Positions 3,361 through 9,821 of a DNA stretch of 26,778 nucleotides are shown in pieces. Position 1 is the stretch's first letter, and the number at the start of each line of letters is the position of its first letter. The notes beneath the pieces are model-generated. The model was not told where the DNA came from and did not search any database. It saw nothing but the letters and a program-made list of their open reading frames with translations. The position numbers were made by a program, and so were the translations under genes. The stretch lies in IMG/VR virus record IMGVR_UViG_3300021338_000070, positions 1 through 26,778 of that record. One strand, given 5' to 3'. The stretch is from a virus.

Positions 3361-3578
3361 ACCCCGACGCCTGCGTCCACTGCGGCGCCCCCAACCCTCC
3401 CCCTCCAGGCCGCTCTACCGTCCCCCACGTCGACGGGTGCCTCCCAGGCGTCTCCTGGGAGAAGCGCCGGCGCGACGGGACCGCCTGGGGAGCCTGGACC
3501 GCCATCCCCGCTCAGGACGCCTACCACTTCAGCCGGCAGCGCGACGTCCAGGTGCGCGCAGCTCCGGAGGCGTGGTGA
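3357..3578 (+). CDS. Very small Cys/His zinc-knuckle-like protein, 73 aa
   Basis: ATG 3357 overlaps the preceding stop (ATGA), and the next gene begins inside its own stop (GTGA). C6-x2-C9 (CVHCG) followed by H24-x3-C28 (HVDGC) gives four possible zinc ligands around a proline-rich linker. The rest (SWEKRRRDGTAWGAWTAI) is basic and aromatic. No named family is recognised with confidence. Its coupled position directly before the initiator-like gene suggests, but does not show, a replication or regulatory accessory role. Confidence 0.6.
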   Translation: MNPDACVHCGAPNPPPPGRSTVPHVDGCLPGVSWEKRRRDGTAWGAWTAIPAQDAYHFSRQRDVQVRAAPEAW

Positions 3579-4957
3579 GCGGCGGCTGGACACCATGCGC
3601 CAACGACTGGTGGCCGGTGGTGGCGGAGAGCCTCACCCAGCCCTGGCCACGTGAGGCCGCCTGCATGGATCTGCGCTGGAGCGTGGACCAGCGGGGGGAC
3701 GTTCCCTCGAGGCGCCAGCTTGCGAAGCGCTGGGGATGGACCCCGGGCAAGGTCCGTGGGCTGCTCCGCTCACCGGATGAGTGGTGGGACCCGAAGAAGG
3801 GAGAGGCCCCTCGATTGGCCTCGCCCAGGCCTGCCGACAAGCCGAAAACCGGACCCACCCTGCACCCACCCGGACCCGACCGGACCCAGGCGGACCCACC
3901 CTGCACCCAGCCGGACCCAGAAGTCGCCCAAACCGGTGAGGAGGAAGGCGAACAATCCGACACGTCGGACCCGCCCTGCGCCCAGGCGGACCCAGCCGGA
4001 CCCGACCGGACCCACCTTGCACCCGACCGGACCCAACCGGAACCACACGCGTCTTACCAACCCTCACCCTCACCCTCACAACAACCTGTGTGTGTTGGGC
4101 AGGCCGACCAGGTCCGGGTGCTGGAGCTCTGGGCGGCCCACGCTGTCGCGGCGGGGCAGGTTGCCGAGGACGTTCCTCACGGCTCCCCGCTGGCGCAGCT
4201 CGTCGCGTCGGCAATCACCGAGCACGGCGTGGACGACATCGACCGGGTGGTGCGCTGGTTCTGGGTGGGAGTCGACAAGCGAGCGACGTGGCTACGCGAC
4301 CGGGACTTCGACCTCCGGACCCTCCTCGACCCTGAGAAGATCGGCGGGAACATCCGACGCGCCCGCGGTGACGTCGGGGTGGTCGAGCGGTCTGGGCGCA
4401 AGCTGACGGCGGAGCCGGGTCAGGCGGAGGCCGAAGCCGAGGCGGCCGGACTCAACGAGCTCATGCAGCAGCAGGCGTGTCAGCTGCTCGACGCTGAGTC
4501 CGTCCACATGCCGACCGGGCTGTACAAGCGGGTCAAGGCGCTGGCAGCAGAAGGCGGACGCGAGGGTTGGGACGAGAATCGGATCGACCAGCTTCGGCAG
4601 CTGGAGGACGAGTACAAGGCCGAGCGAGCCAGGCAGCTGGAGACCGAGGAGCGCAAGCGGCGAAGGAAGTCCGACGCGAAGCGCGCTGAGAAGCTCGCCA
4701 AGGCGACGACCGAGCTCGACAGCCTTGAGGCAAGCTACCGCAACCACGTGGCCGGGAAGGAACGCAGCCCGCCGCCGAACGCCACGACGTCGACCGCCTT
4801 CCTGTGGCGGCGCACCGCAGAGAACTTCCGAGCCGCCCTCGAGCAGGCCAGGGCGGAGATGGCACGGGGCGGGGTTCCAGACCTGTCGGAGGCCAAGGCG
4901 AGCAACAGGGCGATCTCCAGGCTCCTGGCGGAACCTCGACTGCGAGGTCGGGCATGA
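3575..4957 (+). CDS. Putative replication initiator with winged-helix-like N-terminus and internal iteron-like repeats
   Basis: 460 aa from GTG 3575 (GTGA overlap). Residues ~14-70 (VVAESLTQPWPREAACMDL, then VPSRRQLAKRWGWTPGKVRGLL) look like the helix-turn-helix/winged-helix start of phage and plasmid replication proteins. Residues ~90-172 form a Pro/Asp/Thr-rich, probably disordered linker whose DNA carries two phased repeat arrays. Residues ~180-265 form a helical domain resembling a conserved C-terminal segment of phage replication proteins (LVASAITEHGVDDIDRVVRWFW, LRDRDFDLRTLLDPEKIGGNIRR). Residues ~335-390 are a strongly charged coiled coil. Lambda O, which binds iterons inside its own gene, is a direct parallel in layout. 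No ATPase, primase or helicase motif is seen, so host replication proteins would have to be recruited. It is coupled to the RuvC-like gene. The initiator call is inference from domain layout, repeats and neighbours. Confidence 0.6.
   Translation: MSGGWTPCANDWWPVVAESLTQPWPREAACMDLRWSVDQRGDVPSRRQLAKRWGWTPGKVRGLLRSPDEWWDPKKGEAPRLASPRPADKPKTGPTLHPPGPDRTQADPPCTQPDPEVAQTGEEEGEQSDTSDPPCAQADPAGPDRTHLAPDRTQPEPHASYQPSPSPSQQPVCVGQADQVRVLELWAAHAVAAGQVAEDVPHGSPLAQLVASAITEHGVDDIDRVVRWFWVGVDKRATWLRDRDFDLRTLLDPEKIGGNIRRARGDVGVVERSGRKLTAEPGQAEAEAEAAGLNELMQQQACQLLDAESVHMPTGLYKRVKALAAEGGREGWDENRIDQLRQLEDEYKAERARQLETEERKRRRKSDAKRAEKLAKATTELDSLEASYRNHVAGKERSPPPNATTSTAFLWRRTAENFRAALEQARAEMARGGVPDLSEAKASNRAISRLLAEPRLRGRA
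3850..3918 (+). repeat. Phased CGGACCC repeat array 1 (iteron-like)
   Basis: Exact CGGACCC starts at 3850, 3871, 3881, 3891 and 3912. A degenerate unit (TGCACCC) starts at 3861 and 3902. Unit spacing is therefore 11, 10, 10, 10, 11, 10, about one helical turn each, placing all units on one DNA face. The heptamer occurs in all three codon phases of the host gene, so it is conserved as DNA and not as peptide. Confidence 0.85.
3966..4044 (+). repeat. Phased CGGACCC repeat array 2 (iteron-like)
   Basis: Exact CGGACCC starts at 3966, 3987, 3997, 4007 and 4028, with a near copy (CGGAACC) at 4038. Degenerate units are TGCGCCC at 3977 and TGCACCC at 4018. The spacing 11, 10, 10, 10, 11, 10 and the positions of the degenerate units repeat those of array 1. 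The two arrays are offset by 116 bp, which is not a multiple of three, so the gene reads the two copies in different frames. Confidence 0.85.
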
Positions 4958-5736
4958 CCCGCCACGTCATCGGCATCGACCCGGGCTCCGGCGAGCTCGG
5001 CTACACGTGGACCCGCCCCACCGGCGCGGAGCCCCCGGAGGTCCTCGAGCTGGACTTCCTCCGCACCGAGGGCGAGGAGCGCACCACCGAGGGCATCCAC
5101 TTCCTGTTCCGCCTCGGGAGGCGGGTGGAGCAGGCCGGGGCCACGTCCGTCCTGTGGGCGGTCGAGGCCGCGCCCCCGAAGCTGAAGAAGGGGCAGCACG
5201 GGTCCCACATCAGTGGGGCCGGCCCTGAGCGCTGGCGGACCGTCGCCCGCGTCGCCGCGCTGATGCTCGGGCACGAGTTCGTCCAGGTCGGCATCAGCCC
5301 ATGGCGCCGGACGATGGCCGCCCTGGACCGGCGTTGGTCGGGTCGCCGGCGGGGTCGACCGACGCCTCGTCCTCGAGGCCGGTGCAAGGTCGCCGGCACG
5401 AAGCGCATCCCGGGCGCCATGGTGCGGGTCACCTTCGAGTGCGGCCATCGGGACGACTGGATGAGCGCCGCCCTGCTGGACGGGCATCAGCCGGCGTGCC
5501 CCGCCTGCTCGAGGATGCCAGCCGGTGCCACGCCGTCCGACCTCACGACGGACGAGCACAAGCGGGCGGCCTGCGACTGGGTTGCCCTGCACTGGCCCGA
5601 CCACTTCGAACGCCTGGTGGAGGGCCCGAGGAAGCGGGCCAAGACCAGGAAGCCCGACCACCGACTCACCGGCGTCCCGGACGCCTGCGAAGCCCTCGGC
5701 GTGGCCTGCCACGCGATGACCATGGAGACGAGATGA
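4954..5736 (+). CDS. RuvC-like Holliday-junction resolvase with zinc-ribbon-like insert
   Basis: 260 aa; ATG 4954 overlaps the upstream stop. GIDPGSGELGY (7-17) gives the first RuvC-type acidic residue (D9); LWAVEAAPPK (67-76) gives the second (E71); GVPDACEALGVACH (240-253) at the C-terminus supplies D243 and E246 for the metal site. SPWRRTMAAL (115-124) resembles the WR element often found in phage RuvC-like nucleases. Between the second and third motifs lies an extra segment (~125-200) with an Arg-rich stretch, C163-G-H165 and C182-x2-C185, possibly a zinc ribbon. The family cleaves branched DNA; in a phage this would clear replication/recombination junctions before packaging. It follows the initiator-like gene directly, consistent with a replication module. 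Confidence 0.75.
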   Translation: MTRHVIGIDPGSGELGYTWTRPTGAEPPEVLELDFLRTEGEERTTEGIHFLFRLGRRVEQAGATSVLWAVEAAPPKLKKGQHGSHISGAGPERWRTVARVAALMLGHEFVQVGISPWRRTMAALDRRWSGRRRGRPTPRPRGRCKVAGTKRIPGAMVRVTFECGHRDDWMSAALLDGHQPACPACSRMPAGATPSDLTTDEHKRAACDWVALHWPDHFERLVEGPRKRAKTRKPDHRLTGVPDACEALGVACHAMTMETR

Positions 5737-8196: not shown

Positions 8197-9821
8197 TCGA
8201 GAACCGCGTTCGCCTCCCCATCGAGGTGGTCGACGATCTCTCCACGACCCTCAAGGTGCCGGTCGGGCCCACGGTCGGCGACGCGAAGCACGCCCTCCAT
8301 GCGTGGTTGATCAGCGAGCGAGGCGCGGAGCTCCCCTCGCTGGAGGACCTGACGCTCCGCGACCTCCACGGCGCCGTGGTGGAGAGCATCCACTCCAGCC
8401 TCGACCACGTTCGCGAGCTCCGCATCTACAGCCCGCTGTCCCTCGCGGTGCTCTGGCGCAACGAGGAGCTCGACGTCGACCAGCGTCGGATGTTCATCCG
8501 GGCAGCGCAGGAGCGGATGAGCTGGGAGAAGGGAGGGAACCGCGCGGGGAAGACCTACGCGGCGCTGCTCCTCGACGTGTGCACGGCGCTGTCCACCGCG
8601 CATCCGATGGTTCGCCGGTTCTGCCACAACAACGACGTCCCCCTCGACATCCTCCCCGACACCCCCCAGGACGTCGTGGTGGTTGCGGAGTCGGCGTCCC
8701 TGTCCATCCGGGACCACCGCGGCCCCATCGAGGAGATGCTCCCTCGGGACGAGATCATCTGGCACGGCCGCAACGCCAAGGACGAGGCGTACGTCGAGTG
8801 CATCGTGCCCGGCCACGACCGACCGGGCCGAATCTGGTTCAAGAGCGTCAAGCAGACCCACAAGGCCTTCAAGGGCGGGAAGGCCTTTCGGTACCACATC
8901 GACGAGGAGCCCAGCAGCCGGGAGGGGGAGCTCGTCATCGAGGAGTGCTTCCGCGGCGTCGCTGCGGTGGGCGGCAACGTGTCGATCACGGCGACGCCCC
9001 AGGAGGGCAGCTCCTGGCTGCGGGAGAAGCTCGTCGACCAGGTCCCGCCCTCCTACGACTGCGTCGTCATGTCGCTGGACGCCCTCGGGAACAGGCTGGT
9101 CCCCGACTATGGCGCACTCGTCGACTACTTCGAGCGCCTTGAGCGGACGGACCCCAGGCAGGCGCGCATGCGCCGGTTCGGCGACTTCGTCGACCGCGAG
9201 GGCCTGGTGGTCGGCGACCACTGGAACCGCGGCGACTACAGCCGAGAGGGCACGGGTCACGTCGTCGACGACTTCCCCATTCCGAAGGACTGGCCTCGCT
9301 TCAGAGGCGCCGACTTCGGAGTGGGCGACCCGACCTTCGTGGTGTGGGGGGCTCGCGAGCCGGACACCGGCATCCTCTACGTGTACGAGGAGTACGAGGT
9401 GGTGGGGAAGGGGGCAGAGGGGCACGTCCAGCCACTCCACGAGCTGCAGGGCGACAAGCGAGTGAAGATCGACGGGCTCATGGAGTGGCGGTCCGCCCAT
9501 CCCTTCCAGGGCAGTTGGGGTGACCCATCAGGAAAGACCTGGATGGAGGTCTGGTGCGACCACGACCTGGACTTCGAGGCCGCGAACCGTGACCGCAAGG
9601 TCGGCATCGGCGCCGTCCTCGATCGTCTCGCTCCGGGGCCTGACGGCCGACCGCGTGTCCGCATCTTCCGGAAGTGCGCTGCCCTGCTGAAGTCGGTGGA
9701 GAACCTGGCCTGGGACCCGAACTCAAAGACGCCGATGTGGATCAAGAAGAACGACCATGGCTGGGACGCCTTCCGGTACCTCTGCGTAGGGGTCCTTGAA
9801 AGCTGGGAATCGGGCATCTAG
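8193..9821 (+). CDS. terL: Terminase large subunit (ATPase and nuclease)
   Basis: 542 aa, the normal size. Walker A is GGNRAGKT (114-121), Walker B is YHIDEEP (234-240), and TATP (266-269) is the coupling motif. The C-terminal nuclease shows FRGADFGVGDP (370-380) with D374, WGDPSG (442-447) as second acidic site, and WDAFRY (524-529) with D525, the RNase-H-like acidic set. The enzyme drives DNA into the prohead through the portal and cuts the concatemer. The first ~80 residues before the ATPase look like an N-terminal accessory domain. It overlaps the small subunit by 4 nt and is followed by the only intergenic gap, then the portal gene. Confidence 0.95.
   Translation: MIENRVRLPIEVVDDLSTTLKVPVGPTVGDAKHALHAWLISERGAELPSLEDLTLRDLHGAVVESIHSSLDHVRELRIYSPLSLAVLWRNEELDVDQRRMFIRAAQERMSWEKGGNRAGKTYAALLLDVCTALSTAHPMVRRFCHNNDVPLDILPDTPQDVVVVAESASLSIRDHRGPIEEMLPRDEIIWHGRNAKDEAYVECIVPGHDRPGRIWFKSVKQTHKAFKGGKAFRYHIDEEPSSREGELVIEECFRGVAAVGGNVSITATPQEGSSWLREKLVDQVPPSYDCVVMSLDALGNRLVPDYGALVDYFERLERTDPRQARMRRFGDFVDREGLVVGDHWNRGDYSREGTGHVVDDFPIPKDWPRFRGADFGVGDPTFVVWGAREPDTGILYVYEEYEVVGKGAEGHVQPLHELQGDKRVKIDGLMEWRSAHPFQGSWGDPSGKTWMEVWCDHDLDFEAANRDRKVGIGAVLDRLAPGPDGRPRVRIFRKCAALLKSVENLAWDPNSKTPMWIKKNDHGWDAFRYLCVGVLESWESGI

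What the first reader, a model, noticed from the sequence alone, without database searches (positions are those of the whole stretch)
3850..4044. Two helically phased CGGACCC arrays inside the initiator gene, candidate origin
Ten exact CGGACCC copies form two arrays with the same spacing (11,10,10,10,11,10) and the same positions of degenerate TGCACCC-like units. The offset of 116 bp is not a multiple of three, and the heptamer appears in all three codon phases, so selection acts on DNA rather than on protein. They lie in the disordered-linker part of a replication-initiator-like gene, as in lambda O, and are followed by a lower-GC stretch. Phasing at one turn per unit suggests side-by-side protein binding on one DNA face.
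Basis: partly seen in the sequence, partly recalled or inferred. Interest (0 to 1): 0.8.

Follow-up and report, generated by a model that had tools for sequence, protein, structure and literature searches.

The report
Replication origin inside phage initiator gene
A group of uncultured phages appears to carry its replication start site inside the gene for the protein that recognises it, as two evenly spaced rows of short repeats a fixed distance apart; the repeat word differs between phages but the geometry is kept.

Summary
Codon shuffles that keep the protein never reach it (0/2000). Five relatives were found in IMG/VR. Four came from a protein-motif search blind to DNA repeats, and all four carry the same layout: an N-terminal helix-turn-helix domain, then a linker overprinted by two direct-repeat arrays with 10-11 bp steps. 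The repeat word differs (CGGACCC, TCGCCCA, GGTCCCA, AAGGGCAC, TGCGGAGG), but the arrays lie 43 or 44 bp apart, start to start. In the window the distance is 54, that is 43 plus one degenerate unit. Unstable DNA follows the arrays. In two relatives the next gene is a DnaC-like helicase loader or a DnaB helicase. The best reading is a lambda-like in-gene origin bound by the protein's own N-terminal domain. It is not the lambda O family: no sequence match, and the units are non-palindromic heptamers one helical turn apart in a rigid bipartite lattice. No Pfam, PHROGs or PDB sequence family, and no cultured phage, matched the initiator. Binding and origin activity are inferred, not shown. Verdict: new variant of a known kind.

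The parts
3575..4957 (+). Initiator gene (460 aa): N-terminal HTH domain, repeat-bearing linker, unrelated C-terminal part
   Evidence: GTG start overlaps the previous stop; no Pfam, PHROG or PDB sequence match; relatives by N-terminal domain
3575..3799 (+). N-terminal helix-turn-helix domain (PSRRQLAKRWGW..KVRGLLR), presumed repeat-binding domain
   Evidence: Alignment A4 of six; AlphaFold2 mean pLDDT 84.6, helices 26-40, 46-53, 57-64; LexA HTH best Foldseek hit, weak
3850..3918 (+). Array 1: seven units, five CGGACCC and two TGCACCC, steps 11,10,10,10,11,10
3923..3929 (+). Very degenerate eighth unit GTCGCCC(A), one 11-bp step on; counting it makes the gap to array 2 43 bp, as in relatives
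   Evidence: CCC[AG] at gene positions 352 and 395; assignment is inference
3930..3965 (.). Gap between the arrays; sequence not conserved, length conserved (43/44 start to start in relatives)
3966..4044 (+). Array 2: seven units plus CGGAACC at 4038, same steps as array 1
4046..4051 (.). CACGCG box flush after the last unit; also in L011, L034 and L037 at the same place within 1 bp
   Evidence: alignment with L011
4036..4095 (.). Least stable 60 bp of the gene, with (TCACCC)n tract at 4060-4079; presumed unwinding region
4954..5736 (+). Next gene, RuvC-like (weak match); no helicase or loader recognised in the window

Best explanation
The arrays are direct-repeat binding sites (iterons) of the phage's replication origin, lying inside the gene of the initiator that binds them. 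The N-terminal HTH domain of the 3575-4957 protein reads one heptamer per helical turn; several protomers line up on one DNA face in each array; the two assemblies are held a fixed four helical steps apart; the complex opens the weak DNA 3' of array 2 and hands it to a helicase or loader through the C-terminal part. Shown: the repeats, their selection at DNA level, the conserved geometry with changing words, the linkage to the N-terminal domain and not the C-terminal part, the weak DNA after the arrays, and helicase or loader neighbours in two relatives. Inferred: protein binding, opening, helicase loading, origin activity.
For: Synonymous shuffles: 0/2000 in all six genes. L028, L034, L037 and L049 were found by a protein motif alone, and all four have two arrays with 11-bp steps and gaps of 43, 44, 43 and 44 bp; L011, found by repeat pattern, has 43. 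A two-array detector over 593 kb of fetched loci found only these six members and L021. Window and L011 share the word CGGACCC and 62% identity in the first 104 residues, with no detectable C-terminal similarity; relatives with other words differ in the predicted recognition helix. The HTH model is confident. Next gene: DnaC-like loader in L037 (phrog_50, 6.8e-25), DnaB in L049 (PF03796, 6.7e-45). DNA after the arrays is less stable than elsewhere in the locus, Fisher p 1.9e-6 over six. The same plan is proven for lambda O (PMC7466680).
Against: No binding or replication data. No helicase, loader or primase was recognised in the window itself. The window's gap is 54 unless a poor unit is counted. 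The HTH fold match is weak by database comparison (Foldseek E 0.08; VIA Z about 4-5, with unrelated complex I chains ranked above HTH proteins). The weak-DNA signal is modest in L011 alone (p 0.12).
Confidence: 0.82

Rival explanations
1. The arrays are a partition site (centromere) like plasmid R1 parC, where ParR coats two clusters of 11-bp repeats, and serve segregation of a plasmid-like prophage.
For: From memory, R1 parC has two sets of five 11-bp iterons about 39 bp apart, close to the geometry here. L021 and L004 show arrays in or next to genes that read as ribbon-helix-helix proteins.
Against: ParR is a ribbon-helix-helix protein; this domain is predicted as a helix-turn-helix without strands. 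No partition ATPase was recognised by PHROGs among the window genes scanned. Neighbours in L037 and L049 are loader and helicase. The array lies inside the gene of a multi-domain protein.
Confidence: 0.07
2. The arrays are an operator: the protein binds its own gene to repress or tune transcription, and replication starts elsewhere.
For: A DNA-binding domain and its sites lie together; binding inside the gene could block elongation. Iteron plasmids often combine both roles (general knowledge).
Against: The arrays lie about 275 bp inside the gene, not at a promoter; the size, doubling and fixed gap exceed what an operator needs; weak DNA follows them.
Confidence: 0.08
3. The repeats are a coding feature: a low-complexity Pro/Asp/Thr linker grown by slippage in GC-rich DNA.
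For: The linker is Pro-rich and low in complexity; tandem repeats can grow by slippage.
Against: Units fall in all three codon phases, so the peptide is not repeated in register; codon shuffles 0/2000 in six genes; spacing is kept across phages with different words and different peptides.
Confidence: 0.03

Closest known systems
Phage lambda O protein and ori-lambda (and Stx-phage O)
   Same: Origin inside the initiator gene, in the stretch after the N-terminal DNA-binding part; iterons followed by easily melted DNA; helicase loader gene next (as in L037). Lambda facts from PMC7466680 and general knowledge.
   Different: Lambda: four (Stx: six) longer iterons with partly palindromic ends and an AT-rich tract. 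Here: 7-15 asymmetric heptamer units one turn apart, two arrays with a fixed 43/44-bp gap, no AT-rich tract but relatively weak GC-rich DNA; no sequence match.
Plasmid R1 ParR-parC (from memory)
   Same: Two clusters of about five repeats of about 11 bp with a fixed gap.
   Different: Ribbon-helix-helix adaptor, partition ATPase, non-coding site around a promoter; longer gap.
Vibrio PLE RepA_N and its ori (PMC8263062)
   Same: The DNA-binding domain covaries with its iterons while the C-terminal part is a separate module.
   Different: RepA_N fold, three about 30-bp semi-palindromic iterons in a non-coding region.
Iteron plasmid origins (RepE, Pi, RepA; general knowledge)
   Same: Direct repeats in helical phase, initiator-specific.
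   Different: Iterons of about 19-22 bp (two turns), outside the rep gene, with DnaA boxes; none here near the arrays.

Membership tests
Lambda O-type initiator | Sequence match to a known phage replication initiator family (Pfam/PHROGs) | tested here: not met
   No initiator-family match for window, L011, L028, L034, L037 or L049; only chance-level hits to other families
Lambda O-type initiator | N-terminal (winged) helix-turn-helix DNA-binding domain | tested here: inconclusive
   AlphaFold2 HTH, pLDDT 84.6; weak LexA-type HTH match; wing not seen; structural ranks not discriminating
Lambda O-type initiator | Iterons inside the initiator gene | tested here: met
   (repeats shown; binding by the protein not shown)
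Lambda O-type initiator | Palindromic iterons of the 18-bp class | tested here: not met
   Heptamers are asymmetric; no inverted repeat with both arms in the arrays
Lambda O-type initiator | Helicase loader gene downstream | tested here: inconclusive
   Met in L037 (DnaC-like); DnaB itself in L049; in the window the next gene is RuvC-like
In-gene iteron origin (functional kind) | Fragment replicates with its initiator | not testable with these tools
   needs an autonomous replication test
ParR-parC partition site | Ribbon-helix-helix DNA-binding protein | tested here: not met
   All-helical HTH prediction for the N-terminal domain; a prediction, not a structure
ParR-parC partition site | Partner ATPase gene | tested here: inconclusive
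   None recognised in the window genes scanned; the record may be a fragment
DnaA-dependent iteron origin | DnaA boxes beside the iterons | tested here: not met
   No TTNTCCACA within one mismatch before position 9695

The most novel reading that the evidence does not exclude
An undescribed phage initiator family uses a rigid bipartite lattice: about five heptamers at one-turn spacing, exactly three vacant unit positions (four steps), about five more. The fixed vacancy is itself functional, for example as the bend or seat where the helicase is loaded between two initiator filaments, and the heptamer word can change together with the recognition helix.
Probability: 0.4. Interest if true: 0.72.

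Novelty: new variant of a known kind. Interest (0 to 1): 0.6.

Why it matters
It gives a family of phage initiators that sequence libraries do not name, with a readable signature (two arrays, 10-11 bp steps, 43/44-bp gap) by which origins and initiators can be found in uncultured phages. Because the word changes while the geometry stays, each phage supplies an independent pair of HTH domain and site: a natural set for learning recognition rules, and a direct test of whether spacing or sequence drives origin assembly. It also shows a coding sequence overprinted by a DNA lattice whose period is not a multiple of three.

Tried and rejected
Whole-protein and N-terminal searches of phages and plasmids gave no relatives. 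An empty result at E 10 in databases of this size is itself odd, so I do not read it as proof of absence. The Mycobacterium prophage hit H16 (E 2) spans two genes in unrelated annotation and was dropped. Degenerate peptide searches found at most L011. A composite repeat pattern with TGCRCC found only L011 plus four copies of an unrelated AT-rich locus. Single-sequence structure prediction was poor. The VIA-align list is led by complex I chains at Z about 5.5, not taken as meaningful. GC skew of the window shows no clear origin signal. Recent duplication of array 1 into array 2 was considered: the doubling is in all relatives, so it is old.

Full report
OBSERVATION. The window is a 26,778-bp virus record, GC 0.698. 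In the gene GTG 3575-4957 ten exact CGGACCC copies form two arrays with identical steps 11,10,10,10,11,10, joined by TGCACCC-like units; the offset is 116 and the phases are 4/3/3. Permuting synonymous codons within the gene keeps the protein and never reaches ten (mean 2.07, 0/2000). So selection on DNA, not peptide, is the simplest reading.

RELATIVES. Homology searches in named phages gave none. A scan of IMG/VR for GGACCC at 10-bp spacing gave 21 loci. One of them, L011, encodes a relative: 62% identity over the first 104 residues, none detectable in the C-terminal part, and two arrays of CGGACCC plus TGCACCA in its own linker. To avoid choosing by repeats, I then searched for the back-translated HTH motif alone. 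The new hits that read as an HTH protein in frame were L028, L034, L037 and L049; the remaining hits were short or unrelated frames. All four carry two arrays.

GEOMETRY (start positions in the gene). L011: CGGACCC 257, 278, 288, 298, then 341, 351, 372, with TGCACCA in the middle of the 21-bp steps. L028: TCGCCCA 273, 284, 295, 306, then 349, 360, 371 (degenerate), 382, 393 (one mismatch). L034: GGTCCCA 248, 259, 270, 281, 292, then 336, 347, 358, 369. L037: AAGGGCAC 251-295, then 338-382, five and five at 11 bp. L049: TGCGGAGG 264-308, then 352-396, five and five. Start-to-start gaps are 43, 43, 44, 43 and 44. In the window the exact units are 54 apart, which is 43 plus the 11-bp step to a degenerate ...CCCA unit at gene position 349. 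On an 11-bp lattice the gap equals four steps, three vacant places. A detector for two runs of one word at 10-11 bp steps with a gap of 36-56 bp found only these six members plus L021 in 593 kb of fetched sequence (the loci were chosen for repeats, so they are not a neutral background).

TWO UNIT TYPES. In window and L011 every TGCACC-type unit that lies between two CGGACCC units follows an 11-bp step and precedes a 10-bp step (six of six). This is conserved across 62% identity and so is likely functional, but what reads it is unknown.

DOWNSTREAM OF THE ARRAYS. CACGCG stands flush after the last unit in window, L011, L034 and L037. The next about 120 bp are thermodynamically weak for their locus (per-locus p 0.031 window, 0.12 L011, 0.019 L028, 0.050 L034, 0.044 L037, and below the resolution of the test in L049; Fisher p 1.9e-6). 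Short tracts stand there: (TCACCC)n in window and L011, (CACAACC)n in L028, GGAACCA repeats and C8TAC6 in L034, C8TAC7 in L037.

PROTEIN. The six N-terminal domains share PS-R-LA-RWGW. AlphaFold2 on the six-sequence alignment gives pLDDT 84.6 and an HTH (helices 26-40, 46-53, 57-64). Foldseek's best match is the LexA HTH, weak (E 0.08), and the second aligner does not discriminate. The segment after RWGW, the predicted recognition helix, is nearly the same in window and L011 (KVRGLLRS, RVRGLLRT), which share the word, and differs in the others, which have other words. With six sequences this is a consistent pattern, not a test.

NEIGHBOURS. The next gene is a DnaC-like loader in L037 (phrog_50, 6.8e-25), followed by a polymerase exonuclease subunit, and DnaB in L049 (PF03796, 6.7e-45). 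In the window it is RuvC-like. Terminase and portal of the window are distant relatives of those of L049.

MECHANISM. Best reading (0.82): an in-gene iteron origin bound by the initiator's own N-terminal domain, with assembly on one DNA face in two blocks a fixed four steps apart, opening of the weak DNA 3' of array 2, and helicase delivery through interchangeable C-terminal parts and neighbour genes. Binding and everything after it is inference by analogy with lambda O (PMC7466680). Partition site, operator and peptide-repeat readings are set out as rivals.

KNOWN OR NEW. Origins inside initiator genes are a known kind (lambda, Stx phages). That the DNA-binding domain travels with its iterons while the C-terminal part is separate is known for PLE RepA (PMC8263062). 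The protein family has no match in Pfam or PHROGs, and I found no description of this bipartite one-turn lattice in the open-access papers searched, a limited library. I call it a new variant of a known kind.

LIMITS.

Noticed in passing
L021:3802-4485:- (arrays about 4190-4340): A different initiator-like gene: N-terminal sequence reads as ribbon-helix-helix (PAPLHRQLKAQARAAGLSFAEIVRRAF), followed in the linker by two 10-bp GGGACCCC arrays (three and three, gap 38); the next gene reads as a primase-polymerase/ATPase. Suggests convergent in-gene origins with another DNA-binding fold (domain calls by eye).
   Followed up: partly
L034 and L037, just after the arrays; L021 on the other strand: A C8-TA-C6/7 tract (CCCCCCCCTACCCCCC, followed by AGAGGGGG) stands downstream of the arrays in otherwise unlike phages; L021 has a similar G8-CTATA-G7 tract.
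   Followed up: no
L004, reverse strand near the array: A long run of GGGACCC/GTCCC repeats stands upstream of a small ribbon-helix-helix-like protein, more like a partition or operator array (domain call by eye).
   Followed up: no
L049:304-582:+: A 92-aa protein just upstream of the L049 initiator carries the same HTH motif (PSAAMLAERWGC), perhaps a paralogue or regulator.
   Followed up: no
L028 initiator C-terminus and L011:4959-5648:-: Both weakly match DUF6475 and phrog_10105: what is a C-terminal domain in one phage may be a separate downstream gene in the other.
   Followed up: no
L011:4959-5648:- and L034:6388-7137:+: Genes after the initiator share an F-x(0-4)-WP-x-PG motif in otherwise unmatched proteins; candidate helicase loaders.
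   Followed up: no
window:6784-7212:+: Cro/C1-type HTH protein (PF13560, 4e-10), possible repressor between replication and packaging genes.
   Followed up: no
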